A DNA stretch of 64,000 bases from Loxodes magnus. Lineage: Eukaryota; Ciliophora; Karyorelictea; Loxodida; Loxodidae. The notes below the pieces were generated by a model. That model ran no database searches, was not told the origin of the DNA, and saw only the letters and a list, made by a program, of their open reading frames with translations. This document shows positions 28,501 to 63,419 of the stretch, piece after piece (position 1 is the first letter of the stretch; each line of letters starts with the position of its first letter). The DNA lies in the NCBI GenBank assembly GCA_946699065.1, contig CAMPDV010001221.1:62001-126000 (forward strand). Reading direction: 5' to 3'. A program made the translations under genes and the position numbers.

Positions 28501-31500
28501 CTGCTTTTACTCCTTTCTCAATCCAGTAAAATCCTAGTTTTTCTAAGTCAACCTAGCCTCTTAGATTTATTTCTGTTTTTTGCTATAAAATCTAAAAAGC
28601 TGAGAGATTTCGAGTTTTGAATCCAATTTCTAAAGAAGAAAGTAATTTAAAACTTAAAAATACTACAGCTTATGAATCTTACTTCTCTAGCCCTTCTAAA
28701 GAACAATATAACTCTTACAAGCTACTCATATGATCAAAATCAAAGCCATTCTACTGTTGAGAAATATATTTAACTCTAAGCTGATTTTTCTTTCTATTAC
28801 TCTCTTTATAAGACCAACAATATGAATTATGTGTATGATTACAGAGCAACAAGTAAATTAATGCTCTCATTTAGCATACTTACTTTAAGAATCTTGCATA
28901 GGGTTTATTATACTATCATTTAAGCTTATTTTTACCTAAGAACTTAAATCTAAGCAAATATAAGTTACACTGCTTATCTTACTATCAAAATACTCTATAT
29001 AATCATATCAAACTTTAGCATAACTAACTATAGCTATATGCTTATTATATCAAAAAGCAAGAGAACCAACATTAATACAGTATTAGCTTACTAAAACTCA
29101 AATAGTACCTATTATTTTTATGCTAAGAAATAAAAGAAATTGTCTATTCTTTAAATGCAAGAGATTGGTATTATTTCAATAAGAGTGAAATTACTAAGAA
29201 TTTTTCATCTTTAATAATCTTAAACTAAAATACTAGTTATTATCATTCTTTCCTATTAGTTATAATGATAAAGCCATTTAAGTATTATGGATATAGTACC
29301 AGTTCTCAATAGCTATTTACTATACTTTTTATCTATGTGCAAAATATTAAAAATGTAATTTTCTAATTCCCAATTTAAAGAGCATCAATAATCGTAAGAT
29401 GCTTGATACTCTTTAGCGTCAGTCTACTCCTTCCTATACATAGTAATATCTTTAACTCTAAATATTAATTTTAAAATAATCTTTCTTCTAAGCTATCTGT
29501 TTCTATATTAGTTATTAGATGTTACTCCTTTGCTATTAGTAGATTATATTATCCATCATACTTAACTTTAAAATATGATTATACTTCTATGGTATCTTTA
29601 ATATCTTAGATATTTGCTAATGAAAGTGAGTATATCGCTAGTATCTCTTTTTGTATTTATTTAATTAATGAATCACTTAGTTTCTACCTAATATAAGCTA
29701 AATGATTTGCTTATTGATAAAGAATCATATTTTTTAAAATATCTAATCTAAAGATATAAAAAAGATAAAAAATATGGTAGAAGGTTTCAAAAAGGGCTTC
29801 TATACCACCTCTTTCTAAGCTAAAAAGGAAGAGAGGAAGCAGGAAACCTAAATTTCTAAACACCACACGTCATCTTCCAAAACCAAACCTTCTTCTTAAA
29901 CCATATAGGAGCAACTCTAAACAACACCCCCCAGACAACCCTAGAAACACTAACATGCAACAATATCGACTGAGGACCTTCCCAAGAAGCAAAAGATTAG
30001 TAACTTTCAGGCCTAGATTAGGACATTCAACCCCTACATGGACCTCGGAGATCTCAATAAAGAACAAATCTTAGGAATGACGAAGGAGGAAATGGCTAAG
30101 CTTATCTTAGCATTAATAGGAAAAAATAAAGACCTGGAAAAACAGATTGAAGAACTAGCTCAAGAATAGCAAGAGCATTTAGAAGATGAGGAAACCCATG
30201 CTCCTAGAAACAAAAACTAAGCTGCCATGAATATTCGAATTGACGAATTCGACAGGCAGTTGGAATAGCTATATGATATGAACGAGAACATGCACATCAA
30301 GTTAGAGAAAATTGAAAACAATATTAACCTTAAAATGGAGAATATCAAGAATGATATCAAGATTTAGACAGCACACTCCGTTCCAATGGAGTTGGAAGAG
30401 GTCTAGAATAAACAAATTGAATTAACTAAAGAAAGATACTTTAAGAAAAAATGCTTTATCTGTGGAAGAATAAACCATCTCTGAAGGAAATGCAGATAAA
30501 GAAAAGAGATACAAAAGAAAATTTGAAACGAACTAACCTAATTCTACCCAACTAGCAGTGGGAATATTTACAGGAAGAAAAGCAATATTCGGAGCAATCC
30601 ACTGCGAAGACTTGAAAGTGACTGGAGGAACAGACCACCAAGAGTTCAAGTACCTATCAGTTGGATAGGGAGTAGGAAACTATTAAGAAAACAATCCCTT
30701 CTCTGAATAACTTTAATTTAATTTAATTTAATCTAATCTAAAGAATGACAAAAGCAAAACTTTTAATTATCTGACTATATCTAATAACTTAGAGAAGCCT
30801 CTAGCTGGATTCAAGTTCTAAAAGGAAAATTTTCAAATAATTATTCTATTTAGGTAGGTTTTTGAAATATTTGACTATCAAGCAAGCATTCATAACATAG
30901 TAATCTCTGTTTGAAGAAGAAAATCGGCAAATCATCCTACCTCTATACAATAAGACACCGTTCTGAGTTTATATAAAGTGAGAACTTAGTTGTTTTAAAC
31001 CAGTAAAATTAATTTTTGAAATATCTGTTTATTAGAACACAAGGATTAAATACAAAACTAAGGTTAACACTTTATTGTAATGATCAAATTGTGTTGTGAA
31101 AGTTTAGATTTATTTGAGTTTTTCTTCAGAAAGTAAATTTTTATAGTTTATTGACACTATAAATTCCTTTTTTTAGTCTCTTTACTTAGACAAAATAGTA
31201 TTAATAGCTTCAATTATTCAATATAGTTAAGATTCACAAATATTTAATCTTAGATAGAGATTTATCATTCACTTTAATATAGAGATATCTTTAAAGATAT
31301 TAATTTTGCTGCTTTTTATTGTATTGTAGTATTAATTTGAATGATCAGAAACTCTTCAATCATCCGTCTTTTTATATTCTTAAATGTTTAAATAATGTTA
31401 CTTATATCTGACTAGAGTAAGTATTAGTTATGATAAAACTGAAATTTAAGCGAAAACTGATTTTATTCTTATCCTAAACCTTTGAATTCTCTAATTTAAA

Positions 31501-31700: not shown

Positions 31701-33134
31701 AAAAGAGAAACCTAGGAATTCAATCAAATTAGACTTTTAGCTTTTTACGAGCGACAAAGGTTGAAGATTCATTTATAATAGAGATGAACATACATAAGAC
31801 GACTATTATTTAACATTTGAAGAATAAGAAGAAATTAGTGATGATAGGTAAATAAAAGATACAATTAAAAAGGAATAAAAGTAGGAAAATATTAAAGTTT
31901 AAGTTTATAGAAGAGAAATTGTAAGATATAGCTCTAGAAAGCGTCTAGATTAGAAGATTGTTATATAAACAATATTAATATATCAAGATGATACTTATTA
32001 GAAAAGTATCAGATTATATAAGAGGTTATACCTAGACTAAGTTCTAATAAATCGAAAGATTACCTTAATTCTAAGCGCTATTTAAGTTAAACAAACTGTC
32101 AATAGAACTATCCTTTTTAAAGCATTGGAAAATTTACTACTTAAGCTTAATAGTTAAAGGTTTAAAATATTATCAATAATAGAAGAGCAATAAATAACTA
32201 AGACTGGATCAAGCTCGAGTAATCAGCATTTCCTGCAATCATTATAATAACTCTAAGAATATTTACCTTTGTAAGCACTAATGATATCCTAAACTTCTTC
32301 TGTACTATAATTTGGTACTTAAATATTGTAAGTATAATAGAAGGATATAAAGTAAACTGAAGTTAGTTATTTTCTATGAAGTTTTGTAAGAAAGTACTAC
32401 GTTAAGTTGCAAAAATATTTAAAATTTTTATTTGTAAAGTAACTACAAAAGAAACATACAATGAGGCATAAACGTAAGATTCGGATTAAAAAGATATTAA
32501 AGTCGAAGACTAAATCAAAATAAACTGTTATGATTAATTAAGAGATGAAGCTATTTGGAATCTGTAAGTTATTTTTGAAAAGGAAAAAGTGAAACAAAAA
32601 GGAAAATACTCAATAGTCTTTATTAAGAAGAAAGAGAAAAATAAAACAGAACTTTAAATTTCAACCACTCCAGATTATAAACTTTCAGAGAATTTTAATC
32701 TACAGCTTAGATTGTAAAGATATTAAGAGTTATTATTAAAAACATAGTAAATAGGAAAAGAGACAACTTAGATGTCAGAATAACTTGATTTTCAATTATT
32801 AAGAATTGATAAATATCTAATACAAAAACAAAGCTACAAAGCTGAAGAAATATACAAAACTCATTTAAATAATGATAATGAATTTTCAAATTAAGATTTG
32901 TAAATTTAGGAGATCATTAGTGAAATAAAAAACAAATCTTAAATTTCTAAACAATTAATTAATCATTTGAGTATAAACCTTAGTTTTAGTTAAATAGATA
33001 AAATATTCTAATATTAATGAATATCGTAAATAAGTAATCTTGCATCTTACATAATAGAAGATACTTTCTTAGTTCAATTTTAAAAAGATCTTAAAAAAAT
33101 ATTTTGAGATAGTTGTTAAATTAGTAAGCTATGA
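31700..33134 (+). CDS. 3' continuation of the giant gene, or separate gene
   Basis: Coding texture continues after the membrane segments but changes frame. About 31.73-32.38 kb reads best one frame over (YLTFEEQEEISDDRQIKD, SSSSNQHFLQSLQQLQEYL). From about 32.42 kb it returns to the giant gene's frame (TTKETYNEAQTQDSDQKD, CYDQLRDEAIWNLQVIF, KSQISKQLINHLSINLSF). These may be 3' exons with short introns, a soluble C-terminal domain of the giant protein, or a second gene. I could not place splice sites. The last plausible end is the TGA at 33132-33134, just before the convergent gene at 33.17 kb. The domain is not recognised. Confidence 0.45.
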
Positions 33135-33169
33135 GCTGAATTAACTACTAGATTTATTATTTTTAAGTT

Positions 33170-33750
33170 ACTTCTTCCTTTTAAAAGTAAAATGGAAGAA
33201 TTTTCCCTATCTTTTATAGAATTACGTCTTAATTGTTTTTCTTTCTTTCTATTTTTGCTTTAGCTCAGCTGGATAAGTATTTTATCCTTTTCTCTTAATA
33301 CTATACTTTGATTAGCTCTTGTATAGATCTTAGGTTAATTATTTAAGGAACGGAAACCAGATAGTCTAGTCTTAGGTTTTTCTCATCTTCACATATTCTT
33401 TCACGTCCCAATGCTTGTAATTTAGTAATTAGGGCTATGAATTTTATTTAACTAACTTCAGGATACTTCTCTAAAATACTGCTACTAGCTTTTTATAACG
33501 ATATGGCACAAAAAATTTTTCAGCTGAATATAGTCTTCTATTTTTTAAGATTTTCGATAACTAAGCATTTCTGCTTTTACTCTGATTAAATGCTAAGTAT
33601 TAGAATATCAGCTTGTTATTTTAGTTATTTCTTTTCTAATTATTCCATGCTTTCCATCAGTTAATTGAACTTGCCTTTAGTTGAATTATTCCTCCTAAAA
33701 GTCCTTTTACTTTCTTAATTTTCTTTATTTTGCTGATATTTCTCCTTCAT
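33170..33750 (-). CDS. Coiled-coil protein, unknown
   Basis: ATG at 33750 on the minus strand starts MKEKYQQNKENQESKRTF, and about 190 codons follow in one frame. They include STKGKFNQLMESMEQLEKK, ILEKYPEVSQIKFIALITKL and RERICEDEKNLRLDYLV. It is charged and helical, without membrane segments. It converges on the giant gene, with about 40 bp between the inferred ends. The segment with MESMEQLEKK is reminiscent of the ORF1 coiled coil (MSMEQLIKAV at about 1.5 kb), so it might be a member of that family without its knuckle. The function is unknown. Confidence 0.5.
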
Positions 33751-33759
33751 CTTAGACGT

Positions 33760-34590
33760 GAAACATGTAAAAATTAATAAATAGGAATTATTCTTGGCTA
33801 ATTTAGTTCTAATTAATAGCATAATTTAGAAATTACTTTATCTAGCTCCTGTTAAAAAGTTTTATAATGTCTAATATATTTTATTTATCTTACAGAAAGG
33901 CTAAGTTTTTTGAGATTAGATTAAGTAAGTAATATAGTTCAAATTTTATATGATTATTCAGGTAAAAAGAATTAATCTTAAGATCATCAAGGTACTTGCT
34001 TTTAGAAGATACTTCTCCCATTTAAATAAAATCTCTATGTGTTAAATTACTCCATTATATCTTTACTGTTATCCTTAGTTTATTTAGAAATATTAATAAA
34101 TATTTATAATTTTATTCATCTTTACTATATCTTCTGCATTAATTAAAATTATAATTCATAATCTATTTTATCTTTTTATCTAAAAATAGCACATTTGCTT
34201 TATGTGTTTACTACAATTTGAAAAAGCTTTTCATTAAATAAATTTTATATAAGCTTGGTTAGATACCTACTTATATCTATATTTAGTTTATATTATGTTT
34301 CTTAATAAAATTAGAATAATTTAGTTATTACTAATTTTAAAAGCATCTACTGTTTCTTTTCTGTTTGATCTTTTTATTAGTTTCATCTATTTCTAAGTAT
34401 TTATATTTATAAGTAATTTATTCCTTTTAGAGGTTATTTTCTTCCATTTTATGTAATAATTTTAAAAGTAGTTAATTCTTCTATTTAATTTAATTACTAT
34501 TTTCATTCAATTACTTTAATTTAAATTATTTTCTTAAGTTTTTTCTATCCAATCAAATATTAAGTAGCATTTTTATTTTTTACTCAATAA
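33760..34590. other. AT-rich intergenic region
   Basis: Spacer between the coiled-coil gene (which points away) and the start of the TRIM-like gene. It would hold the promoters of both, but I see no motif I can name. Confidence 0.4.
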
Positions 34591-34599
34591 AAAAATTAA

Positions 34600-37047
34600 A
34601 TGCCAGCGGCCAAGTGTGAAGCATGTGAAGAAGATTTCAACTAAGAGCTTAAAAAGCCTAGGCAATTGGACTGTGGATGTATTCTCTGTGAGAAATGCTT
34701 GAAAGGCATTTATAATATTAATAAAAAGTTTAGATGTGAAACTCACAACGTCATAACTGAAAGACCAATTGAGACACTACAAATCCCAGATCTAGTAAGT
34801 CATTAAGTATAGAACCTTATCAATATTTAGGACATTTGCTAGACTCATAGATAGTATTCTTTAACCCTGTATTGTGTATAGGACAGTATAAGAATCTGTG
34901 TACAATGTGAATAAGAATCGCATCAAGGACATGGATGTATTACAACGTAGGAGGCACTCTAACAATTCAAAACTTACATAGAATAAACTTTTGGTGCCAT
35001 CAAGTAGAGGATAGACTAATATATTTCTATTTTGGATCAGCGTTAGTAGAAAATGAATGAAGAATATGTATGTGGTAGAAATAGGATATTTTAGTTGTTA
35101 ATGGGAGTTAAGTAGCAAATTTAATAAGTCTTTAAGGAGATGTTGGATGATTAATAGTTGTAAATAGAGTAGTAGGTGTAGTTATTAAAAGGCACTGCGG
35201 ATTACTGCTAGCAGATAGGAAGTTAGGTTAATGATATTTCGAATGTTTCTTAGGACAGTATCGTTCAATGTGAGGATAAGAGGAGTAAGTTGGATTAGTT
35301 TGAGTAAGACATCTAGAGTAAGTTCTGATAAGTATCATAGTCGAATGATATCTTATGTTAAGAATAGTTCGTTTTCTAAAGTATCTAGAATAGATTTCAA
35401 GTTAAGTTAATGGAGAAGTTTTAGTCAGTCTAAGTTTACTAGAGTTGCATGAGATAAGCTAGTAAGATAAAGCAGTTACAGTAATCAATAAAGTATTTAT
35501 GCCAAGACTTTCAGTAATAGTTCATCTAGTAAGAAAAGCGTGAATAGGAGTATCGCAAGCAAATCTCTTCTTTAGAATAATAGGTTGCATCTTACATAAG
35601 TTAGGTCAATGGTTTGAATACATAGATCATCGGATAGAGTAAGACAATAAAAGACTTAACTGAGGAGTTAGTCAAAGCTAAGTAAAAATCTTCTTAAGTC
35701 CTCTAATAAGCATAGCATGAGTATCAACTTTAGTTGAAGAATAGGGAGGACTAACGTTAAGCCTAATAGCTCAAGTATGCTTAAGACATCTAAGAGCTAC
35801 AACAGCAAAAAGTCAATCTTCAATAAGATCTAACTCTTAGTCAATAATCCTTCAATCAGTTATAAGACTAGTTACATAAATCATCTTAAGAGAATATCAG
35901 ATACTAAGAGTAGACTAATATCTTATTGAAGGAGTAGGAGAGTATGAAGTCTGCATTTATTTAATTGGAAGCAGATAATAAGAATAATACTGACTAGCTT
36001 AGATAAAAGGAATAATAATTATAAGATCTTTCATAGTCATTGGAGGAATATAAGACTTAAGTTCAATAACATAAGGATAATGGTTGGAGTGAGTTGGTGA
36101 GAGAGTCAAGTTTCAAGTATAATTTGGCTAAGAGAGTGAATAATTTTCCACCAAGGATAGCAGTATATAGGAGAGTATTCTTCAATACCAATAAGATCTA
36201 ATCTTACAAGTTGGACAGTATCAATGGCTCCTGTGTTTACAATGTGGTAGCATCAATGACTCCAATATATGGTAATTGATCCTCGACACATTAGATCTCT
36301 GATGAGTTAGTAATCTAGGTGGGTGGTAACTCAACTAAATCACATCTGGATAAGATCTTATAAATAACAATTGGTAGTGATTCAGTGATAAAAGCCTCAG
36401 CTTCTTTGATCTAGCCAAGAAGTATAACTTAAATGGGATATGACAATGACAGATTGTTGTATATATTAGGAGGAAGTGATCCTTAATCAAATTCTGGTTC
36501 ATCTCATGATTATTGAAATTACTACAATTCATTGGAGGTGTACGACATAGTTTTGAATAAGTCTGTGTCATTGTTGAGTAATAAGGATTGTATCACTGGT
36601 AATGGAATATGGGTATCACATGAGAGAGTCTGGATAGTGGGTGGTGCAATATAAAGTTCAGATTTATCTAATAATTTCACTAGATCAAGTTTGGTATCAT
36701 CATATGACGTGATGTTGAGTGTGTATTAGTAGTATGGGATGTAGTTACCTAAGCCGGCATGTTCATTGGCAAGTGTGTGAGTGAATGAGACTGAGTGTGC
36801 TTATATTTGGGACAGGTATAATCATCTTAAGTAAACATGTGTGTTTGACACTAGGTCCATGATAAGGGATGGTAGTTAATATCCTTAATTACCTAACTCT
36901 TTCTGATACAATAGTCAATAAGTGAATAATGTCATATGGATGTGGAGTAGTGATTCTAAGTCATAGGCAAATGTGATATATTATTACGACATAAAAGTTG
37001 GTGCTTTGAAGAATAGAGAGTGGAAATCTATGCAATTGAGTGAGTGA
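34600..37047 (+). CDS. TRIM-like RING/B-box/coiled-coil/kelch protein
   Basis: 815 residues in one frame from ATG 34600 (MPAAKCEACEEDF). RING-like ligands: C6, C9, C25, C27, C30, C33, C46, H49. B-box: C80-x2-H83-x8-C92-x7-C100-x2-C103-x4-H108-x2-H111. Then a long Gln-rich coiled coil (about residues 130-500), and a kelch-type propeller with Gly-Gly strands (VIQVGGNS, LLYILGGSD, VWIVGGAI) and 'yyYD' strands. Such proteins are usually E3 ubiquitin ligases with a substrate-binding propeller; the ligase role is inferred. Gln is mostly TAG/TAA. In-frame TGA occurs at 35326, 36277, 36514, 36778 and 36904, and a further one at 37045. No frameshift accompanies them, and several sit where a propeller expects Trp (HDYWNYYNSLEVYD). 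I end it at TGA 37045-37047; the frame then runs into tandem repeats. No intron is needed. Confidence 0.85.
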
Positions 37048-37082
37048 GTTGAATCCCTTAATGAGGACAGTTACAAGTAATT

Positions 37083-37375
37083 ATATTTAAAGTATATTTT
37101 AAGTATATTATAAAGTTATTAAAGTATATTAGAGTATTATAAAGTATATTAGAGTATATAAAGTATATTAGAGTATTCTAAAGTATATTAGAGTATTATA
37201 AGTATATTAGAGTATTATAAAGTATTATAAGTATATTAAAGTATTATAAAGTATTATAAAGTATTATAAAGTATTATTAGTATTCTAAAGTATATTAGAG
37301 TATTATAAGTATATTAAAGTATTATAAAGTATTATAAGTAAATTAGAGTATTATAAAGTATATAATATAAATTAT
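37083..37375 (+). repeat. AT tandem repeat
   Basis: Degenerate tandem units of the type AAAGTATATTAGAGTATTAT, with shortened forms such as AAAGTATTAT, start directly after the TRIM-like gene. Confidence 0.85.
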
Positions 37376-37383
37376 GGATATAA

Positions 37384-37478
37384 GGTATGTATAGAGTATG
37401 TATAGAGTATGTATAGAGTATGTATAGAGTATGTATAGAGTATGTATAGAGTATGTATAGAGTATGTATGGAATATGA
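37384..37478 (+). repeat. 11-bp tandem repeat
   Basis: AGAGTATGTAT is repeated about eight times almost without change, in register with the AT repeat before it. Confidence 0.9.
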
Positions 37479-37503
37479 ATAGAGTAAGTGAAGAGTGAGT
37501 TAA

Positions 37504-38126
37504 ATGAATTAAGAAATGAAAAAGTAAGAAATGAAAGAAAAGAACAAAAGAACAAAGAAAAGAAAGGAAAAAAGAAAAAGAAAAAGAAAAAGAAAAAGAA
37601 GAAAGAAAGAAAGAAAGAAAAGAAGAAAAAAAGAAAGAAAGAAAGAAAAGAAGAAAGAAAAAGAAAGAAAAGAAAATTAAAAAAGGAAAAAAGAAAAAGA
37701 AAGGGAAGAAAAAAAGAAAAGAAAAAAAAGAAAGAAAGAAAGAAAAGAAGAAAGAAAAGAAAAAGAACAAAGAAAAAGAACAAAGAAAAAGAAAGGGAAG
37801 AAAAAAAGAAAAGAAAGAAAGAAAGAAAAAAAAAAAAGAAAGAAAAAAAAAAAAAAGTAAGAAAAAAAGAATAAAAAAAAGAAAATAAAAAAAAAAAAAA
37901 AAAGAAAGGGAAGAAAAAAAAAAAAGAAGAAAGAAAAAAAAAAGAAAAGAAAAGAAAATAAAAAAAAAGAAGAAAGAAAGAAAAAAAAAAAAAGAAAAAA
38001 AGAAATGAAAAGAAAAGAAAAGAAAAGAGAAAAAAAAAAGGAAAAAAAAAAAAAAAGGAAAGAAAGAAAAAAAAAGGAAAAAAAAAAGTAAGAAAGAAAA
38101 AAAAAAAAGAACAAAGAAAAAGCAAA
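37504..38126 (+). repeat. Near-pure purine tract
   Basis: About 600 bp composed almost only of A and G on the plus strand, in AAAG/GAAA/GAAAA units, with a handful of C or T. The long Lys/Arg and Phe/Ser ORFs read from it are low-complexity artefacts. Purine/pyrimidine mirror tracts of this kind can form triplex DNA. Confidence 0.9.
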
Positions 38127-38372
38127 GGAAAAAAAAATTTATTTTTGTAAGAGAAAAAATGTAAGTAAAAAAGGGAAAAATTTTTAAAGTAAAGAAGAAA
38201 AGAAAAGTAAGCAGGGGAAAGAATAAAAAAAATTGAAAGAAGGGAGAAGGAGTGTGAAATAAATGAGCATGGAGAAAGAAAGAGATAGTGGAGTTAAAGG
38301 GAGTAGATTAGAAGTATAAAAAAGGTGCAAGGAAGTGTAAAGAAGTGGTAGTAAATTCATGAAAAATAAAAA

Positions 38373-38945: not shown

Positions 38946-39257
38946 TGCAAAATTAAGGAAAAGGGTTAAAACGTAATATTTTTAAATAAAAAATAATAGA
39001 ATCATGAATAATAAAAAAATAATTTAGAAAATAGAATAAAGTAAGCTTCGATATAATAAAAAGATTAAAATATTTATAAATTTAATTATTTAGACTTATT
39101 GATAAGAAAAACTAAGTTAAAGAAGAATTATCTTATAAAATATTTAGAGAAGTAAAAATAATTTGAATATAAGAATAGATAATGATGAAAAGAGATAACT
39201 AACTAAATTAAGTAAAAGAAAACAAAAAAAGAAATATAATTAAGAGAGAAAGGAAAA

Positions 39258-39310
39258 GTGTAGAGTTTTTTTTGGAGATTTACACTATAGAAGAATTTTA
39301 TGATGGACTA
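39258..39310 (+). repeat. 53-bp dispersed repeat, diverged copy 3
   Basis: Same order of blocks as the two upstream copies (T-run, TTTACACTA, AAGA, T-rich, GATGGACTA) but clearly diverged. It lies about 85 bp upstream of the ORF1 element. Confidence 0.6.
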
Positions 39311-39394
39311 ATCTTGGATGATTTGTTTTTACTTGTTTAAAAAATAATAATAAATTTTTTATATAATATAATTTAATACAGTATTTAATATAAA

Positions 39395-40460
39395 ATGGCT
39401 GGCTTCAAGAAGGGCTTTTTTACCACCTCCTCAGAACAGAAGAGAAAACCAGAAGCAAATATTCTCACCACGTCTTCTTCAACTTAACGCTCTTCTTAAT
39501 AAAAATAGCCAGAACATCAAAATAAATTAGAAGAACTAATAAAAAATACTAAATCCTACAAATTAAAATAAAGCGGACTTCTTCCGTCAAAGGACAAGCA
39601 GGAACTGAGACAAAAATTAAGAACAGAAAAGTTGACACAGCTCTCAACGCCTCCATTGAAAAATGAAAAAAGAGACCACTCAACTGAATTGATAAAAATA
39701 ATAACGAAGAAATAAAAAATAAACGAAGAAGGTAAAGTACGATAATTTAATATAGATCCTATTACCTTTGATTTAGACAACATTGAAATAGAACAAATGA
39801 ACTCTGAATAGATGAAACAGCTGATTCATCTACTTATTAGAAACATAAAAAAAACTCGAAGAGGAATTAAACTCCCAGAAGGAAGAGATGCTTACAATAA
39901 GTCAGGATCTGATAAACCATGAAGATGATGACGAAATCCATATGGTAGATCGAAGAGCTAAAGTCGGAGTCTATGAGTCAATTTAAAATTTAGAGAATGA
40001 TATTTGAGTAATGCAAGAGCAAGACGAGAAAAACTGAGTAAAATTAGATTCCAGACTTAAATTAATAGAAGAAAACCTGTAGAAGCCTTTTTAAGAAATT
40101 CCAATGGAAATAGAGAAACAAGAAAAGATATTTCCTAGAGCAAGGAAAAGATGTTACATTTGCAACAGCACTTGACATCTATGGCGAAAATGTCCCCAAT
40201 AAAAAAGAATAAGAATGAATATTCGGAGTAATATTAACTATTAGCAACTGAAATGGCGAGCGACGGAATTCTTCCCATCGGGAAATGGGAAAATCTGGAA
40301 AAAAAAGCAAATTCTTAACTCAGGTTATTAAAAAGAGAGAAGTCCTGGAAAAAGAGCACAAGGAACGAACATGCAGGAAAGGAGATTTTATACATTTAAA
40401 ACTTCATTAAGCCGGAAGGCGAACAGTTATTTTAATTATTTAAAGATTTAATTTTCAATT
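39395..40460 (+). mobile_element. ORF1-type CCHC element, copy 6
   Basis: ATG at 39395 starts MAGFKKGFFTTSSEQKRK, homologous to the 29.8-kb element. It has a coiled coil (NSEQMKQLIHLLIRN; LEEELNSQKEEML), then zinc knuckle CYICNSTWHLWRKCP near 40.15 kb, in which the first Trp is TGA and the second TGG. An Arg/Lys-rich tail (MNIRSNI, SGNGKIWKKK) ends at about 40.44 kb in a TTATTTTAATTATTTA run. It is well preserved, with at least one break. A clear target-site duplication was not found. No reverse transcriptase follows. Confidence 0.8.
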
Positions 40461-43696: not shown

Positions 43697-44143
43697 ATGG
43701 TTAAATAGGGAAGAGAATTTTATGTACTATGGAAGTATTAGCAAGAGTAGTTTAGACAAACTAACTTCTATGTGCAAAGGATACAAGATTAGAGTCAACA
43801 CATTAAAAGCATCCTGTAAAGTCAGAGAAGCTAGCAGATCCCATAGAGTAGGTAAATTTCGAAAAGATGGAGATTGAGAAGAATCCTCAACAAGCGAAAA
43901 TAATTGAACCAAAACTCAATATTTAGAAATTATGGTACTATTGCAAAATTAGTAAAAGGAAAAATTAGATCTGATGCAACGAAAAAGGGTCAGTTTACAG
44001 AATGAGGAAGAATTCTGAACTAGAAGAACAAGAAGACTTAGACTTAACTAATAACAGAAGAAGAAGAATTGGGGATGAAAACTTCACGAGTGTTAGGGCT
44101 CGTAAAAACAGGTTCAAACTCCAAAACTTTAATTAATTGGTGA
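43697..44143 (+). CDS. Small conserved-tail protein (IR1 right copy)
   Basis: 149 codons from ATG 43697 (MVKQGREFYVLWKYQQEQF) to the TGA at 44141. The first 90 residues are basic and Gln-rich and do not match the left copy. From RSDATKKG onward it aligns with the minus-strand gene at 4025-4470 through a TGA-encoded Trp, KNKKTQTQLITEE, LGM and SRVLGLVK, after which the frames drift apart. The point where homology starts coincides with the inner edge of IR1, so the inverted repeat carries only the 3' part of this gene plus about 1.2 kb of downstream DNA. The function is unknown. Confidence 0.6.
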
Positions 44144-45304
44144 TCGATTAGATACCATAGACATTTTTTATAATTAATCAGTAATAAATGAAATATTTTC
44201 AAAATAAACTCGTTCATTTTTATTTAATTGCATTTTAAAATACTATCTACTTTTTTATTTGCAAATAATTTATTTTGCTAAGAATTTCTTGCATAATTAT
44301 ATAAAAATCTTTTGGAAAAAGTTATTTTAAATAATTAATACTCAAATAGCATTTTACATTTTTCTTCTATTAGAACAAGTTCAAAACTTTGCTCTTTAAT
44401 ATTTTTTTAAATATATTTTCAGATTCTGCAATTTCTAGTCGAAAAATATGTAATTTTTTCTTCTCTTTTTACCATAAGAAATTTGAAAAAACACTTAATC
44501 ACTAAAATTGAGTATATATTTATTACCTTAAAATTTTCTATTTTATTATTATTTTTAGAACTATTTATGTTAAAATCTTTAGTCAATTTATAAAATTAAT
44601 AATACTAGTAATATAAATAAGGCTTTTTCCATCATTTTTTAGTATTTTAAATTATAATTTTTATCTTTAAAATATAAAATTTTAATAATTTATACATTTC
44701 AAATACTATGTAAAAGATGAAAACTATACCAATTTATATTTACAATAGTAAATATAGATAAATATAAGTTGTAAGATGGAGTATTTATAAATAAAATGAA
44801 TGTAAAATAATTTAAAAGTTTATTAAAACATACATATCTAATAATTATATCAGATAATAGATTAAAACTATTTCTTAACTAAGATATTAAAAAGTTTAAC
44901 GTAAATTCGCTCTACTTGACATAAGCATTAATATTTATTTTTTCATATAGTTTAAATAATTGTTTTATATCTAAATTTCGAACTGCATTCTTTTTAGTTA
45001 TTCGCAACTTTTATTTAAATAATAGAAGTAAATATTATATTAAGACTATAATTTGAAAATATATAATCTTCTTGTTTTTAACTGCTTTACTGAATTTACT
45101 AAATTAAAATAAAATTTTTATTTTTTTAATTCATTTTTTATATAATTTCTACTAAAAGTCTTTCTGTTCTAATTAAAAAATTTATGTAATTATCATAATT
45201 TTACATTTATTAGTTAATAAAATTTAAAAGTTCAAAAGTTTTAGAAATTATAAACACATCATTTTAAAGTAGAATTATCATATATATTAATGTTGAAATT
45301 ACTT
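43966..45304 (-). repeat. Inverted repeat IR1, right arm
   Basis: Reverse-complement partner of 2864-4180. Matching landmarks include TTTAAAATACTAAAAAA near the middle, ACATAAATAGTTCTAAAAAT, the Asp/Lys-rich coding tail, and the outer end TTAATGTTGAAATTACTT. Confidence 0.75.
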
Positions 45305-45309
45305 TGCTA

Positions 45310-46950
45310 TAGTATTAAATAGAAGATGTAGTAAAATTTAATTATTATAAAATCAAGCATAGAAAGTTTATTTCTACTAAAAGCAATATAATTATAAAAA
45401 AAGAATAAAGCAGCATAATACATTTAAAATATATAATAATGCTTTATTATTTAAATTATTGCTACTCTTTTTACTGTAGTTTCACTTAATAAATACATTT
45501 TTTACTTCTAATAATAAAATTTTTAGAAGCGCTATTGAAAAGAGCTTTCCATTTAAAACTTTAGAAATGATATTTTTAAATTTTAAATGCAATCGAAAGA
45601 GAAAAAGAACTAAATCTATTCCTTGTATTTGTATTTTTAAAATCTGATTTTATTCTAGATTCTAAAATTTTCTTTATAATTTATTTCTAAGATTCATTTG
45701 TTTTAGAGTAATTCAAAAAAGAAATAAGACAAGTTTTTCAAATATAATAATTTTCATGCTGACTAATGAAAAAATATCAGAAATAAGAGTATATTAATAA
45801 TAAAATAATAAAATAGCTAAAATTATATATCAAATATGGTTTTACAAACTGCTATTAAGTAAATAAATTTCTTTATATAACTTTAAGAATATGTCTAAGA
45901 CTATTAAAAATAGTAAAATTAAACTATATTTCAAAAAGTTTATTCTATATTTAAAGAGTTATAATTATTATAATCTAAATTTTCAAATTAGTCTGTAGTG
46001 ATATATGTATATATAATAAGCTAAATGAAAAGTAAAATAGATGAGAAAAGATATTTGAAAGCAAAAAGTTATATAATTTTATATAAACTAATATATTTTT
46101 GAAGGAATCACTTTTAAATAAACTTTTTTTAACTAATCAAAATTTTAGTTAAAATTGCTGGTAAATTAATTAACTCTAAGAAGTAAAGATTGATAAGAAT
46201 TAAATAAGCATTATTTAAATTAAAAATTTAATACCTATAACTGATTAGAAAAATATGAATAACGAAAATAATAAAATACTAAAACGCTTAAAAAAAGTTA
46301 ATTTCAATTAGATGTAAATTTAAAATAAAAAATCAATATAAATTTAAGGGTCCTGAAAATAAAAGATTGTAACATAAAAATTGCATTAAAAATGTATAAC
46401 CTTTTTTTATTAGCAAAAGTATTAATTGCTGCTTAAATATTTATTTATTTTTTAAATTATTTTTTCTTAAGAAATATATATTAAAATATTATAATTGCTT
46501 GAATTAAAATAAATGAAAATTAAATTTTGAAAAATAGTTTATATCCAAATAGATATCAAAATGGAAATAAAAAGAGTGTTGAAAAAAAATTTTTTTTTAA
46601 TCATCATAAAAATAAGAAAATTATAGAAAATAGATAAAAAATTGATAAAAAATTGATCTTTGACTATTAAAACAAATAAATTTTATTTTAAATTGCTATA
46701 AATATTTGATAAGTATACTAATTATATTAAGAAGTATTAGACTATAAAAGATAACTAATAAAGAAAATGCTTTATAAATTTAGTTATATTTTTGATGTAA
46801 AAATTTATATTAATACTTATTTAATATTAATGAAAAAAAGTAGAAAAAAACAATATTGACTTTTAATAGAAAATATTAAGAAAAAGAAAATTAGTTAATT
46901 TAATTTTCGCTGATCTAAATTAAAAAAACATTTGAAATTTACTTTCTTAG
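45310..46950. other. AT-rich spacer
   Basis: Extremely AT-rich, with long A and T runs. No gene, RNA or repeat recognised. Confidence 0.5.
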
Positions 46951-46959
46951 ATATCTTAA

Positions 46960-47150
46960 TAATAATAAAGGACTGAAGAATCCAGGGCTTAGATCAGAAT
47001 TTTATACAATCCTGTAAAATAAAGATAAAGTTTTATAATATGCCTAAAACTATCAGTTATAATTATTAAGAATTATACCATAAATCTGAAAAACTAGAAC
47101 AAAAATTCTTTAGAAATATTATTGAGTAATCTAGCATAAAAAGTACAATT
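46960..47150 (+). CDS. Short coding island, unknown
   Basis: A GC-richer patch reading GLKNPGLRSEFYTILQNKDK and LLRIIPQIWKTRTKILQK on the plus strand. It could be the start of the ORF1 fossil 300 bp downstream or a separate fragment. Confidence 0.25.
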
Positions 47151-47479
47151 AAAAAACTATGTGGAGCCAAAAATTCTAAAAAAATTTTGTTACATAGGAT
47201 CAAAAAACTGAGCCTAATTTTTTTAATAACTTTTTAAGCTTAAAATTCCTTCTAAAATGTTTTTACTTCTAAGAATTCGATATCGTCATTCAAAATTGAC
47301 TATCTTGAATTTTTATAAGTTTGGTATTTTTTGTTTATTTGTATTTAAGATAATATTGTGTCGAAATAGTTGAGCAATATAAAAGACGAGTACTTTAAAG
47401 TATTTAATAAAGGCTTACTAGAACAATTTAATTGTATTCTAGGGTAATTTTCTGATAAGGCTTTTTAATAAAGTATATA

Positions 47480-48280: not shown

Positions 48281-49512
48281 TAAAAAAAAAACTTTGATTA
48301 AAGTGCGCGTAGCACCACAATGGTGCGCAGCACTATAAAAAGTCAATTGAATACAAATTCTTACTCCAAGATCCCTTTTGGTAATAAATATTCCTCTATT
48401 ATTTCGTCAATCTCTTGTTATTCTTTTTCTTCCTTCTTCTACAGTATTTCACTATTTATTATTCTTCTTTTTACTATTCCCTCACTATAAGCCTTTTGAA
48501 TTTTATCTTATATTTTCATTTCATTATTATTTCTATATCTTTTTCTTTTTATTAAGTTTTTATATATTCAAATGAATTATCCTTTTCCAGCCCTATAATA
48601 TTTTCCAATTTCTTTCTTTCGATCAATTATTCCTTCTTGATATCCTTTTTTCCTCTGCTTTAAAATTGTACTTATATAGTCTTTTACTATTTAATCTACT
48701 TATATTCTATGTTTTATTTCTTATTTTCTTATAAATTTTTCGAATTTAGCCGTACCTCATACTACATCGAATAATTAAAGTCCTATTCAATTTAATTACA
48801 TTTCTTCTAAATTTCTTATGCACTTTTCTCTTCCATCACTGTATTCTTCACATTCTTCTATTATATGTCTTTCATCTTCTTTTGATTTACTGCACATCGG
48901 GCATTCGCTTTTTTCCACCAAATGTCTTTCTTTCAAGCAATCTTGACTTCCATTGCATCTTACTCTTAGTCTAAAAATATAGCATATTTCATCTTTTCTG
49001 TATTTGTTATATCTTAGATAATTTGCTGGTCCTTTAATATATTCATCAAATCAATACACTCTATATTATCATGTCGTTACCATTTAATCCATTCTCCATC
49101 TGTCTTCCATATTTGTACGATATTCTCATATTTTTTTACTAATGTTTTCTTTCCCTGTTTTATTATTGTTTCCGTCATCTATAAACAGCTCTACATCTTT
49201 GATTTATATCTCTTCTTTTATTAACGTACAATATTATTCAAATATAAAATTCTCTTCTCTATTTATCTCAAACATTATCCCATCCAATGTTTTCCCTTGA
49301 TTACCTATTAGTTTACTTCTTAACCTTAATGTTTTTTATCATAAATAATGTTTAAACTTCATAAATTGCAATTCGTGTTCCAAAATCTCATTTTGCACAC
49401 AAAATGGGGCATCCATTATTGCTCTCAGTGATCTTCTCTATAGAAATTCTAACTATTCCATTGTTTGTTTACCAATAAACTATTCACAATATGGAGCCAT
49501 TTCAGTACCATA
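48281..49512 (-). mobile_element. 5'-truncated LINE inserted in IR2
   Basis: The minus strand starts abruptly in the ORF2 thumb at LYGTEMAPYCEQF and stays in one frame: QLEFLQRRSLRAIMDAPFC, ILEHELQFMKFKHYLW, then the C-terminal Cys/His motif CPMCSKSKEDERHIIEEC. TGA encodes Trp in VTTWQYRVYWFDEY. A 3' untranslated part ends in the GC-rich hairpin at 48303-48333 and an A/T run. Truncation at the 5' end and an imperfect duplication of about ten bases (TTATAA-AAAA) at both ends are typical of target-primed insertion. The uninterrupted IR2 right arm shows the empty site. Confidence 0.85.
48303..48333 (-). repeat. GC-rich hairpin motif, copy 2 (LINE 3' end)
   Basis: GTGC-t-GCG-CACCA, loop TTG, TGGTG-cta-CGC-GCAC on the minus strand: a stem of about 12 pairs with one small bulge on each side. 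It lies at the very 3' end of the truncated LINE, where LINE reverse transcriptases of the stringent type recognise their RNA. Confidence 0.8.
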
Positions 49513-50844
49513 TAATAAAATTTAGAAAAATAAATAAAAATAAATAGTTATGTAAAAAATTTAGGATAGCAAGTATACTTTTTTCTATACAAATAGACTT
49601 TAAATAAGTTACTTAAAATCTATTTTAGTAAATTTTTATAAGGATTTAATAAATTTAATTAACTGCAGTAATTCATATTAGGTTATTGATAGTTAGTTAG
49701 TCGTTAATATACTGTCTTAAAAAAAGCAAATCATAAAAGATTAAAAAATAAATAATGTAGACTTTACTAATTATCAATACTAGATGTGATAGAACTAAAA
49801 GATTAATTTTTTATAAAGTTAACTGTATCAAGATAAATATGTTATAACAATTTGAAATCTATAATTCTATACAAATATAAAATAATTGCTGAAAAAATAC
49901 TAAAGAAGAAACAATTGAAAGAGATATCCTAAAATTAAAATTTATATATTTTTGATAGGAAATTTCTAATAATAGTTAGAAAATAAAACTAATATATACT
50001 TTTCATTTTTTCAAAATTTGAAATAGCGATTTATAAAATTAAATATGAAATTTCATTAGAAGGAGTTAAATAATTTTTAAGAGCAATAACTTTACCTATT
50101 ACAAATAATAAAACAAAATTTTAAGAAATTAGAGCAATTAATCAGATGAAGCAATTTAAGTTATCCAACCAATTTTTCATAGTTTTTAATATTTTATTTA
50201 AATTAATTTATTATTATTTTTTAGAGATTAAGGACAGTCTAACTTTCGCCGTGAGTAATACACTTAACAACCTTTTTACTGATATAACGGGAATATTCTG
50301 CTGATCATTTCTGCAAACAGAGACCACCATAGATACAAAAAAAGTTACTTTAATATGATAAATTTTGTTGATATTAGCCTAAATAATTTATATTTTTAAT
50401 TTTTAATTTATTAAAGATCATAAATCTGTTTTCTAATTTATAATTAGTTGTATTTAATAAAATAAAATGCTTATATTTAAACTGTTTGCTATTGGATTTA
50501 ATTTTATAAAATTTATGCTACTGCATAATTTTTGTAATAATAGTACTTATTTAGAAAGTTAAGTAATTTAAAAAAGTATATATTTGAATATTATTAATAA
50601 GATTATGCTTTAAATTAAATTTCATAAAGCTTTAATAAATAATTTTCTATTTACCATTAAAAATGCTAATTTATTATTTTTGTTAAATATAAGATAAAAT
50701 ATTTAAAACAATAAAATATATAAATCTAAAATTTAAAATGTTGATAATTATAATAACAGTTTTTAAATATTTCTAGTTATAATTAAACAATAATTGCATT
50801 ATATTATTTTTTCGTGGAGATTTTACGTTATAAATAATTAATTA

Positions 50845-52739: not shown

Positions 52740-53350
52740 AAGTTGTTTTATGAGATGATAGGATTGTTTTATGCGATCATAGAATCATTGCAGTTTTCTT
52801 AAGAGCTCACTTCTTCTGTTGCGTAACAGCTAGCACAATTTTAACATTCTTGATCACAAGAATCTTGCTTCAAACTCATTTTAGCACAAACATTTTTTTT
52901 CTCTTATTTTTTGAGCATTTACTATATCTAATAGTAATTAATCTCCACTCTGTATATTTTTCTTTTAGATCTTTCCTTCTGGAGAGCAATATGTTTTAGT
53001 TATATTATTTTTATATCTTTTAGGTATTTAATTCTTGCTTCTTCTAAAAATATGCCCAATCTTCTAACAGTAGAAACAACTTGTTATACAATTCTTTGAG
53101 TCACAACCTATTTTTTGACATTTTTAGACATTTTTAGACATTTTTTGACGCTTTCAAAGTTTTAGAATTTTTTCCGTTTTGAAAGAGTTTTTGTATTCTG
53201 TTCTTCAATTTCTATAGGATCGTTATTGGGATAGTGATGGAAAACGAGTTATACATAGCTGCTTAGTTTAATAATTTTTTTTTCCAGTTCTTAATTAACT
53301 CGCAATATTGAAGCTTTGCTTTAATTTCAGTTTTTAATCATTTATTTTCA
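52740..53350 (-). mobile_element. ORF1-type CCHC element, fossil copy 8
   Basis: The minus strand gives a basic protein with knuckle CFYCQKIGHIFRRSK (C-2-C-4-H, last Cys lost), followed by the tail YCSPEGKIQKKNIQSGDQ, which matches the 20-kb sequence. Just upstream of the knuckle a small tandem repeat (units like GACATTTTTA, about 53.12-53.15 kb) encodes repeated KCQKCQK. Old, with breaks. Confidence 0.6.
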
Positions 53351-53359
53351 TTTAATATT

Positions 53360-54320
53360 TGTTGTATAGTATAGGTTAGAGAATTGATTTGTTAATTTAA
53401 GTCTTTGAATTTTTGCTAATTTTTTTTATTTTCTTCAAGGAAATAAATTTTAATGAGCAATTTAAATTAGTTGATATACTTTTAAAATTAATTTTTAATA
53501 ACAAAATTTAATAATTATAATTATTTAAACAATATATTCTAATAAAAATAAATATAGGATAAATGAAGAATTTGTAATTATAAAATCGTTAATACTTTCT
53601 TAATTTTTTAAGAAACTTCTAAACTTTTAGCTGAAATTAATCTTGAATCTTAAAAATTATTAAAAGAAAGAAAAGAGATATTTCACTTAGTTTTGAGATA
53701 TTTAAAATTAAAAATTTTAGATTATTTTAGAGTTTTTTTACTTTGAATTGATTTGATTTTTTTATTAAATAAATTTTATTTAAAAAATTTATGTTTTTTG
53801 TTTTTTAAATTAAAATGTTTTTCTTTTGAATCTTTTTAAAATCATATTTACGATATCTTATAATAAGTTAGTAAGTTTTTTATGTTCATCAAATAGACTG
53901 ATTTTCTATCTTTGAGATATATTTTTTACAACTTTATAAAAGAATATATTTACTTATGAAAAAAATTTTCAACAATATATTGTAATTAAAACTAAATTAC
54001 TTGCAATTATAATATTTTTTACCTTTTTAATTTTTTAATTTTTTAATTTTCAAAATTTTTTCTTTCTTATAGCTTTATATTTATTCTTCTATAAATTTTT
54101 TATAAAAAACACTTTTTTTATATTTTCTTTTAACTTTACGTTTTTTAAATATTATTCAATTAAGAGAATTTTATTCCTTTTTTCGTTTCTTGATTTTAGG
54201 TTTGATTTAATTTGTAAATTTGTACATTTGTAAATTTTTACTTTTTATCTTTGTAATGCTACTTAATATTTTTAAAATTATTAAGGAATTTAAGCTTTAC
54301 TAAATTAAAATTAAAGTCAG
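53360..54320. other. AT-rich spacer
   Basis: Very AT-rich with T-runs; nothing recognisable. Confidence 0.45.
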
Positions 54321-54329
54321 CAAAAAGTT

Positions 54330-54580
54330 TAAGTTCAACTCAAAAAACAATTTATTAGGATTTTTATGTGATTTTCAATCCACAAATACAATCCGAGATT
54401 TAAAATGTTCCTTATGTTCTAATTAAATTATCTTCTGAGAGATCCAACTTCTTCCGGTAATAAGTTTTAATATTATTGAGAGTTAACTACTCCCTCCAAC
54501 TTGGATCGAATGCAACAGAAAAATTATTTTCTAAATTTTTCCATAAAGATATAAGGACCCACTTTAGCTCAATATGAAAT
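54330..54580 (-). CDS. Coding island, unknown
   Basis: The minus strand reads GKIQKIIFLLHSIQVGG, LSIILKLITGRSWISQKIIQ and RIVFVDWKSHKNPNKLFFE in one frame, GC-richer than the flanks, with one TGA as Trp. It may be an exon, a germline segment between AT-rich DNA, or debris. Confidence 0.3.
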
Positions 54581-55019
54581 TTTAAAACTTAAATAAATGA
54601 AGTTATATGTTTAATAGAAGAAGTCTTAATATCATAATTTTAATATCTAATTCTTAAAATTTATATTATATTTGGAGATAAAAAAATAGCTAATTCTGTA
54701 AATTTTATATCTTTTACTTAAAGCCAAAATAAATGCTAATTATATTTGTAAAATATTTTAAATTTATGAAGTTTTATCTAATACTTTAGTATGACTAAAA
54801 TAAAAATAGAAAATAATATGAAAAATTAAGATTACTTATTTGCTTTCTCTTAGTATGAAAATCTAAATTTTTTTTTTAATTAACCTGTTAACAAAAGGAA
54901 TAAAAATTAAACATATAAATAGTATTAGATATATAATTTTGTAATTAAAGTAATAAATAGAGCATTGAAAATATATTTAAAAAATTAACTTCTAATCACA
55001 ATCAGAAAATTTATAAAAA

Positions 55020-55230
55020 ATTTATAAGTCATAAAGTAGACCTAGAAGATGCATTATCTAAACTGGAAGATCTAATCTTTCTAAATGGATTTTAATTTCT
55101 GATAGGGTGATGCTAGATATATTGAAATTTTCAAGAGCATACACATTATCAAAATACTGAACTCAAGATTGTTGCTTGGTAGAAAATTCATTAAAAAATT
55201 CGAATAAATTAGTAAGTGACTTAAATAAAT
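55020..55230 (+). CDS. Coding island, unknown
   Basis: The plus strand reads KVDLEDALSKLEDLIFLNG, then WNFQEHTHYQNTELKIVAW, with TGA as Trp. It stops where the DNA becomes AT-rich on both sides. Confidence 0.3.
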
Positions 55231-55239
55231 TTTCAAACA

Positions 55240-55980
55240 ATTTTAACTTATTTAAGTATATGCTAATAAATTAATGGAAATATATAAATAAGAAATTTAT
55301 GAGCATAAGCAAATTTTGTGCATGCTAAAAGATATTATCAAATTTAATTAAATAAATATATATAAAATTTAATTTTGATTTATACTAGATAAAAATTGTT
55401 TATTAATTTTTTCTTTTAATTCAATTTTTATGTCTAATAAAATTTTTATATACGTATATTTTCTATATTTTAGTATTATGAATTTATAATAAATTAGAAT
55501 TTAATTTTTTTTAAATATAATGAATACTTAACAATATGCTAAATACCATTACATTATATTATTTCGGTATTTAATTAAATTAATAAAAATTTAAATATTT
55601 TTTAGATTAAATCTTCTTTTACTTTAATAATTTTTGCTTCTGATTTAATTTCCTATTTTTTCATTTTATAATAAAATAATTTAATAGTAAATAACATTTG
55701 ACAGCTCTTATTAATAAAGAAAATTTAAGATGTATAAAAAAATAATTTTATAATTGTATCCATATTTTCCATTTTGGTATTTTTAGTAGGTCTGCTATAA
55801 TTTTTTAATTATTTGTATCTTAATTATATTTTTATGAAATTTTTTTGTAATGAGAATTCTTTTTAGAAGATGAAGTAGGATGAAATAAGATGCATGAGAA
55901 AATTAAAATTTTGTAAAAGCTTTTTTATATTAAAATTTTTTTAAAACAATTTTGAAAATTCTTCAGTTTTTAGTTCATTT
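55240..55980. other. AT-rich spacer
   Basis: AT-rich DNA between two coding islands; nothing else seen. Confidence 0.45.
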
Positions 55981-55989
55981 TTTATTTTT

Positions 55990-56200
55990 AAGATTAAAGT
56001 ATCATCGAGTAAGAAATTTTAGTATTTGTAATCCATAAAACGACTTATTACATCTAATTTCCTCTTTTTAATCTTATTTTCTCACTTCCGAGAAAAATCC
56101 TCGTAAAAAGTTGGATATCATTCTCCTAAAATAGATTAATATTATTTTGTATCTTCTGACGCATTACCTTCTAAACTGACTAATGTTGTTAAAAAAAAGG
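55990..56200 (-). CDS. Coding island, unknown
   Basis: The minus strand reads VMRQKIQNNINLFQENDIQL, FTRIFLGSEKIRLKRGN and QVVLWITNTKISYSMIL in one frame. It is on the same strand as the island at 54.33-54.58 kb and may be an upstream exon of the same gene. Confidence 0.3.
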
Positions 56201-56209
56201 CAATTAAAA

Positions 56210-57180
56210 AAATAAAATAAGATAATATTCTAGTTTCTTTTTAATATAAAAAGAAAATCCTAATTCAATGGTAAATTTTATTTAATAGATATAATTTATT
56301 TTCATTATTATTTTTAGCTATATTAATAAAATAATTATTTTCGTTTCTTATTTTTAGATCTAAAGGAGCAATAATGCTACTTTGATTTTATTTGAGATTT
56401 AAAATTTAATATTTCTAGTTTTTAGAACAAATATTTATTAATTTTGGATATTATTTTTCTTTGAGTTTTAGAAAGTTAATTTGAAGTGCAAATGATACTT
56501 CTTTAAATTAAATATGTTTATTAGCTTATCAATAATAAAATTTGGTTAACTCAATAATATCATATTTCATTTTCTGTTTGCAACGAAATCTATCTTTATA
56601 TTTTTTTCAAGTTTTTTTAATATTTTTTTCATGTTGAATAAAATTAATTTTAATATTCTTATAACAGATTAAACCATTTTTAAATAAATTGGTTGCTATT
56701 TTTTTAAGAATTTTTTATTTCAAATGAAAGTTAAAAACAATTAGTTAAAAAGATCGTATATATCCTTTTTTATTAAGAAACATACAGATAATATAAAATA
56801 GATAAATAATTAAAATAATAATTAAGTTATATATTTCTAATTAAAAACTTGTTTTCTAAATATTAAACTTGACAACTTTTTTTTAAATTCTAATAAATTT
56901 TAAATATTTTTTATAAAAATATAATTTTTCTAGTTATTTACATATAATATTGATATTTTTAAATTTTATCATTAAGGTTTTTAAGATTAATTAATAAATT
57001 AGCTGCTGAATTTTTTAAGAATATACAGATTAAACTTTTAATTAAGATATTAGTTTTGCAATTAAAATATTTTCTTATTTCTTATAATAAAATTAAAAAA
57101 TTTAATTTAATTTCTTAAATATATCTTTGTCTTTTAGTTTTTTTAATATATCTAATTATTATGTTAGCTAGGCCTTAATT
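56210..57180. other. AT-rich spacer
   Basis: AT-rich DNA, nothing recognisable. Confidence 0.45.
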
Positions 57181-57192
57181 TCTAAGTATTAG

Positions 57193-57350
57193 ATGAGAAA
57201 AAAGCAATTTATAAGGATCTACGACTTGGAAACGCAAGATGAATAGATGAATATAACATTGAAAATTTCTGATAAGGAAAATTTTGTAAACTCTAATATG
57301 TGATAAACCAAACAAGTATGACACTACAATAATAAATTATGTAATTATTG
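57193..57350 (+). CDS. Coding island, unknown
   Basis: ATG at 57193: MRKKQFIRIYDLETQDEQ, then ITLKISDKENFVNSNMW, with TGA as Trp. It is short and fades into AT-rich DNA. Confidence 0.3.
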
Positions 57351-63417: not shown

Positions 63418-63419
63418 TC

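What the first reader, a model, noticed from the sequence alone, without database searches (positions are those of the whole stretch)
34600..37047. TGA is a sense codon, most likely Trp, alongside TAA/TAG=Gln
The TRIM-like gene keeps one frame for about 2.4 kb yet contains five internal TGA codons plus one at the presumed end, without any frameshift. Independently, zinc knuckles in the ORF1 family show TGA and TGG exchanging at one Trp position (HL-TGA-RKC at 30.48 kb, HL-TGG-RKC at 40.17 kb), and a TGA is conserved in the two IR1 genes. Together these argue for a code without a dedicated stop, as in karyorelicts or Condylostoma.
Basis: partly seen in the sequence, partly recalled or inferred. 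Interest (0 to 1): 0.8.

Follow-up and report, generated by a model that had tools for sequence, protein, structure and literature searches.

The report
UGA read as tryptophan in Loxodes

Summary
In detail: one open frame, 34600-37047, with TGA at 35326, 36277, 36514, 36778, 36904 and 37045. The window's assembly is 705,730,643 bases, matching the 706 Mbp macronuclear assembly of the karyorelict ciliate Loxodes magnus, whose published code (NCBI table 27) has UGA as Trp or stop by context (PMC11441545) and UAA/UAG as Gln. I tested this in the same genome. In 40 pieces of dynein heavy chains, 40 of 57 in-frame TGAs lie in columns whose commonest other residue is Trp, and 7 more in a Trp/His tie. 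The tRNA-Trp genes found carry CCA; 3 of 5 read have a 4-bp anticodon stem; an exact UCA pattern found none. The TRIM-kelch gene belongs to a family of at least 55 loci; 40 clean copies all keep two or more internal TGAs in frame and end at a TGA at the same place. Its paralogues alone do not prove Trp: one TGA/TGG exchange, but Arg, Tyr, Cys, Phe, Ser or Thr elsewhere. The zinc-knuckle and inverted-repeat arguments are weak. Verdict: correct, already known. A by-product, a hypervariable TRIM-kelch family, may be more interesting.

The parts
34600..37047 (+). TRIM-kelch coding sequence: RING, B-box, Gln-rich coiled coil, kelch-like domain, ending at TGA 37045-37047
   Evidence: neighbouring and genome-wide copies
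35326..35328 (+). in-frame TGA, codon 243 (coiled coil); CGA (Arg) in 18 of 20 copies read, TGA in this copy and one other
36277..36279 (+). in-frame TGA, codon 560 (kelch); TGA in 35 of 40 clean copies, else Phe 3, Cys 1, Thr 1
36514..36516 (+). in-frame TGA, codon 639 (kelch); TGA in 10 of 40, Tyr 26, Cys 4
36778..36780 (+). in-frame TGA, codon 727 (kelch); TGA in 39 of 40, TGG in 1
36904..36906 (+). in-frame TGA, codon 769 (kelch); TGA in 40 of 40
37045..37047 (+). TGA codon 816, read as the stop: all 40 clean copies have their first in-frame TGA after codon 769 at this place (in 8 of 40 small indels put a neighbouring TGA of the local run in frame); no TAA/TAG/TGA in the 25 codons before it; frame relative to the sequence after it differs in 13 of 40
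37048..37486 (+). AT-rich sequence after the stop (15.2% GC over 37048-37370, against 32-36% in the coding part), tandem repeats from 37106
29702..30493 (+). gag-like ORF1 remnant with zinc knuckle CFICGRINHL-TGA-RKC at 30452
39182..40193 (+). second ORF1-like remnant; zinc knuckle CYICNST-TGA-HLWRKC at 40152, in another frame than its first part

Best explanation
The window is macronuclear DNA of Loxodes magnus, which uses the karyorelict code: UAA and UAG are Gln, UGA is Trp inside genes and the stop near the mRNA end. In this gene the five upstream TGAs are read as Trp and TGA 37045 ends the protein. Most likely a tRNA-Trp with anticodon CCA and a shortened (4-bp) anticodon stem reads UGA throughout the gene, and release factor eRF1 wins only when the poly(A) tail and its binding protein are close. 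Shown here: sense use of TGA, Trp identity in dynein genes, the 4-bp-stem tRNA genes, absence of TAA/TAG/TGA just before the stop, loss of frame after it. Inferred from published work: that this tRNA does the reading, and the poly(A)/PABP switch.
For: Assembly size 705.73 Mb against 706 Mbp for the L. magnus MAC, with table 27 stated for Loxodes. Dynein C-terminal domains: 40 of 57 TGAs in columns whose commonest other residue is Trp (7 of 305 well-filled columns are such), 7 more in a Trp/His tie; codon inference, scored on 54 of the 57, gives Trp 163.9 against -60.6 for the next, and the same method is right for 51 of 62 other codons. Two of the three TGAs of L105 face Trp in solved DNAH1 and DNAH6. 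tRNA-Trp: 286 pattern places (control 2+2), every place in the capped list CCA, 3 of 5 read with 27:43 unpaired, exact UCA pattern 0. Kelch family: 40 of 40 clean copies keep at least 2 internal TGAs over codons 519-815. Stop: 0 of 1000 codons are TAA/TAG/TGA in the last 25 of 40 copies, against 793 of 11000 upstream.
Against: No expression data were at hand. In the kelch family alone, codon inference on clean copies gave Tyr, not Trp, for TGA (it was right for only 28 of 47 codons there). Ten of 57 dynein TGAs lie in columns where Trp is not the commonest residue or nothing else is aligned. In the dynein set with both TAA and TAG masked, log-odds preferred Glu over Gln for both, although Gln was the commonest single residue opposite them; in the kelch set the masked test gave Ser and Lys. 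Two of the 5 tRNA-Trp genes read have a normal 5-bp stem. The genome carries no name in the tools; its identity rests on size and code.
Confidence: 0.96

Rival explanations
1. Tetrahymena-type code (UGA only stop); the TRIM-kelch gene is a pseudogene with six nonsense codons.
For: The region is full of repeats and broken retroelement-like pieces; codon 243 looks like a recent CGA to TGA change; two of 42 kelch copies are frameshifted.
Against: 40 of 40 clean copies carry in-frame TGAs without frameshift over codons 519-815; TGAs sit at Trp positions of dyneins; the neighbouring copy keeps the frame over 218 substitutions.
Confidence: 0.02
2. TGA is sense but means another residue (Cys, Arg or selenocysteine).
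For: Residues opposite the gene's TGAs include Arg (codon 243), Cys and Tyr (639).
Against: Dynein columns give Trp by a wide margin; tRNA-Trp genes have the stem reported to read UGA. Selenocysteine would need a SECIS element in each gene (recalled); I did not search for one.
Confidence: 0.01
3. Condylostoma-type code, in which UAA and UAG also act as stops at gene ends.
For: TAA lies 33 nt after TGA 37045 in the same frame, so a TAA stop at 37078 is not excluded by the window sequence alone.
Against: All 40 clean copies have an in-frame TGA at this place, and in 13 of 40 the frame relative to the following sequence is shifted by 2, 4 or 5 nt; Loxodes is published as UGA-only.
Confidence: 0.04

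Closest known systems
Karyorelict nuclear code, NCBI table 27 (Loxodes magnus, PMC11441545; Parduczia sp., PMC4967479)
   Same: UAA/UAG Gln, UGA Trp or stop by context; TGA and TAA missing before the true stop; GC drop after it
   Different: Nothing found that differs
Condylostoma magnum code (NCBI table 28, number recalled)
   Same: UGA = Trp, no dedicated stop codon, Trp tRNA with CCA anticodon and 4-bp stem
   Different: There all three codons are also stops; here only TGA is seen at the gene end
Blastocrithidia nonstop code (table number 31 recalled)
   Same: UGA = Trp through a 4-bp-stem tRNA-Trp(CCA)
   Different: There UAR is Glu and UAA the stop; here UAR is published as Gln and UGA is the stop
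Tetrahymena/Paramecium code (NCBI table 6)
   Same: UAA/UAG = Gln, UGA stop
   Different: UGA is not a sense codon there

Membership tests
Karyorelict code (NCBI table 27) | UGA inside genes = Trp | tested here: met
   dynein columns
Karyorelict code (NCBI table 27) | UAA and UAG = Gln | tested here: inconclusive
   Kelch copies exchange TAA with CAA (codon 760) and TAG with CAG (codon 789) at columns otherwise invariant; log-odds with TAR masked gave Glu first in dyneins, although Gln was the commonest residue, and Ser or Lys in the kelch set. Published as Gln
Karyorelict code (NCBI table 27) | UGA is the stop at gene ends, with TGA and TAA depleted for about 20 codons before it | tested here: met
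   In-frame TGA at this place in 40 of 40 copies, 0 of 1000 codons TAA/TAG/TGA in the last 25; frame shifted after it in 13 of 40. Tested in this family only
Karyorelict code (NCBI table 27) | organism is a karyorelict | tested here: inconclusive
   assembly size matches the L. magnus MAC; no rRNA comparison made
UGA reading by tRNA-Trp(CCA) with 4-bp anticodon stem | pair 27:43 not formed, anticodon CCA, no UCA tRNA-Trp | tested here: met
   3 of 5 genes read (contigs C67, C148); 2 of 5 (C110) have 5 pairs; exact UCA pattern 0, though a UCA tRNA of other shape could be missed
Condylostoma code (NCBI table 28) | UAA and UAG also terminate | tested here: inconclusive
   no sign in this gene family; other genes not tested
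Tetrahymena code (NCBI table 6) | UGA never sense | tested here: not met
TRIM (RING, B-box, coiled coil) with kelch tail | RING, B-box and kelch domains | tested here: inconclusive
   B-box over Pfam's cut-off; RING and kelch below it in the window protein; kelch families match 7 of 12 members at E up to 0.1; coiled coil judged by eye

The most novel reading that the evidence does not exclude
The gene belongs to a repertoire of at least 55 TRIM-kelch loci in one ciliate genome whose kelch domains share a nearly fixed frame but differ at about 20 hypervariable codons, including a loop of varying length and residues. It could be a diversified recognition system, with variable propeller faces joined to a ubiquitin-ligase head and spread by gene conversion, in which UGA is one of the codons admitted at variable sites (557, 695, 722).
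Probability: 0.3. Interest if true: 0.6.

Novelty: already known. Interest (0 to 1): 0.17.

Why it matters
The code itself is published, so the finding mainly shows that a reader of raw sequence can recover it. Two details add something: the Trp reading holds in conserved dyneins, and this genome holds tRNA-Trp(CCA) genes with both 4-bp and 5-bp anticodon stems, which would let the division of labour between UGA and UGG reading be tested. The hypervariable TRIM-kelch family would matter more if it proves to be a recognition repertoire.

Tried and rejected

Rejected: the zinc-knuckle exchange and the IR1 TGA as evidence for Trp. Codon inference on 22 kelch copies first gave Trp, but the extra TGA/TGG columns 671, 678 and 808 came from two frameshifted copies (L052, L053); after dropping them and adding 20 more copies the same inference gave Tyr. 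I therefore rely on dyneins for residue identity. On re-check, 'TGA at codon 816 in 40 of 40' proved to be a statement about the protein alignment: in 8 of 40 copies small indels make a neighbouring TGA the in-frame one.

Rows dropped: 2 of 42 kelch copies (frameshifted). Of the 55 TRIM-kelch loci I read the kelch part of 42, the window's own included; codon 243 was read in 20. Of 46 dynein matches I fetched 40 (28 loci); the six weakest were left.

Full report
What is there. The protein begins with RING-like and B-box fingers, continues with a Gln-rich coiled coil (by eye) and ends in a kelch-like domain. Five of the six TGAs and all seven TGGs lie from codon 490 on.

Where it comes from. The window is bases 62001-126000 of contig C1221 in an assembly of 705,730,643 bases and 7843 contigs. 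The published L. magnus macronuclear assembly is 706 Mbp (micronuclear 848 Mbp), rich in LINE-like retroelements and repeats, and its coding sequences average 33.5% GC against 18.6% in 3' UTRs (PMC11441545: abstract, passages and section 11 seen). The gene shows 32-36% GC and 15.2% over the 323 bases after the stop. The same paper states that Loxodes uses table 27: UGA is the only stop and also Trp when far enough from the poly(A) tail, with TGA and TAA, not TAG, depleted for about 20 codons before the stop. An earlier transcriptome survey gives UAR = Gln and UGA = stop for Loxodes (PMC6935857, passages). Identification as L. magnus is an inference from size and code; no rRNA comparison was made.

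Is the frame maintained through the TGAs? A second copy lies at C1221:53750-56239, inside a segmental duplication. Over 2445 aligned bases up to the stop there are 218 substitutions and two small gaps 11 bases apart that sum to 3 nt; the 5' flank has 65 substitutions and eight gaps of 1, 2 or 4 nt in 2128 bases. dN/dS is 0.54 (NG86, TGA codons left out). Genome-wide, one search gives 80 matches which I group into 55 loci (30 near full length or long, 19 and 6 in two subfamilies with a more distant N-terminal half); four pairs have equal scores and stop counts and may be the same sequence twice, and the tool calls its counts lower bounds. I read the kelch part of 42 of them; two are frameshifted and were dropped. 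All 40 others keep the frame over codons 519-815 with 2 to 5 internal TGAs each (4, 24, 10 and 2 copies with 2, 3, 4 and 5).

Does TGA mean Trp? The gene's own family cannot settle it. Codon 727 is TGA in 39 and TGG in 1 of 40; 769 is TGA in 40 of 40; 560 is TGA 35, Phe 3, Cys 1, Thr 1; 639 is Tyr 26, TGA 10, Cys 4; 557, 695 and 722 are variable sites with TGA in 3, 1 and 2 copies; six TGG columns (671, 678, 737, 780, 782, 808) are TGG in 40 of 40. Codon 243 is Arg (CGA) in 18 of 20 copies. An automatic inference on these 40 copies gave Tyr and was right for only 28 of 47 other codons. I therefore went to dynein heavy chains in the same genome: 46 matches to the Dynein_C domain, 40 fetched from 28 loci. 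They hold 57 TGAs and 135 TGGs; 27 of 40 pieces have at least one TGA. Five columns (Trp 18/TGA 10, 22/3, 21/6, 12/13, 18/8) hold 40 of the TGAs, one column tied between Trp and His holds 7, and 10 are scattered. The inference, scored on 54 of the 57 (columns with at least five other letters), gives Trp 163.9 against -60.6 for the next residue, and is right for 51 of 62 other codons. In L105, TGA codons 118 and 156 face Trp in the solved DNAH1 and DNAH6 chains; the third, codon 224, does not.

What reads it? A pattern for tRNA-Trp with either CCA or UCA anticodon finds 286 places with up to two mismatches (control 2+2); every place in the capped list is CCA. ARAGORN calls the five that I read tRNA-Trp(cca). 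In three (contigs C67 and C148, which hold tandem arrays) bases 27 and 43 are A-C or T-C, leaving a 4-bp anticodon stem; the two on C110 have five pairs. An exact UCA version of the pattern finds nothing; a UCA tRNA of other shape could be missed. A 4-bp-stem tRNA-Trp(CCA) is reported to read UGA in Blastocrithidia and Condylostoma and to be present in Loxodes (PMC13092985, passages; PMC12005148, passages; the underlying Kachale 2023 and Swart 2024 papers were not seen).

Where does it stop? In all 40 copies the first in-frame TGA after codon 769 lies at this place; in 32 the ending is like the window's or the shorter MQV-TGA, and in 8 small indels put a neighbouring TGA in frame (MQLDVN-, MQLDVSE- or MQLDAIE-TGA). 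None of the 1000 codons that precede it by 1 to 25 is TAA, TAG or TGA, against 793 of 11000 further upstream (copies are related, so this is not 1000 independent trials). Counted from the TGA to a conserved landmark downstream, 27 copies have 18 nt and 13 have 13, 16, 20 or 22 nt, so the frame is not kept after it. The distance-to-poly(A) model is taken from PMC4967479 (passages) and was not tested here.

The knuckle at 40152 has a TGA of its own before the His, opposite Asn in the 30452 copy. The inverted-repeat arms show no codon signal.

Side result. Over 297 kelch columns of 40 copies, 136 codons are invariant, 50 vary only synonymously and 111 change residue; 20 columns have five or more residues, in small clusters, and codons 763-767 form a loop of changing length. 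pN/pS is 1.59 in those 20 columns and 0.45 in the rest; the columns were chosen for their variability, so the first figure is biased upward. The coding part of the neighbouring copies differs by 8.9%, their 5' flank by 3.05%. This fits diversifying selection with gene conversion, but recognition is a guess. The word kelch does not occur in the main text of PMC11441545, and the listings shown for searches on hypervariable/TRIM/kelch with ciliate or Loxodes (10 of 155, 4 of 4 and 8 of 70 papers) named no paper on such a family.

Noticed in passing
34600-37047 and at least 54 other loci of the genome: Large TRIM-kelch family with a fixed frame and about 20 hypervariable kelch codons; the two copies on contig C1221 differ more in the coding part (8.9%) than in the 5' flank (3.05%).
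   Followed up: partly
G000 contigs C67, C148, C110 (L096-L100): tRNA-Trp(CCA) genes in tandem arrays (C67, C148) with 4-bp anticodon stems in the three read, beside two genes on C110 with 5-bp stems.
   Followed up: partly
window 32459-37966, 53076-58799, 59504-64000: Segmental duplications within contig C1221: the first recurs about 43 kb upstream at 91% identity, the other two about 113 kb upstream at 97% and 95%.
   Followed up: partly
window 200-4100 with 44040-47200; 49500-50400 with 62350-63230: Two long imperfect inverted repeats; the first shows no codon periodicity, the second little (21/28/32 substitutions by phase).
   Followed up: partly
window 37514-38137: About 600-nt A/G-rich tract with strong GC skew after the TRIM-kelch gene.
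   Followed up: no
window 58810-59103 (-); L018-L022: A repeat of this stretch also lies in the tandem units on contig C78 that carry tRNA-Ala(TGC) and tRNA-Lys(TTT); ARAGORN found no tRNA in the window.
   Followed up: no
window 18713, 30452, 40152: Three diverged retroelement-like CCHC zinc knuckles (His replaced by Arg in the first); no Pfam match in the two regions scanned.
   Followed up: no
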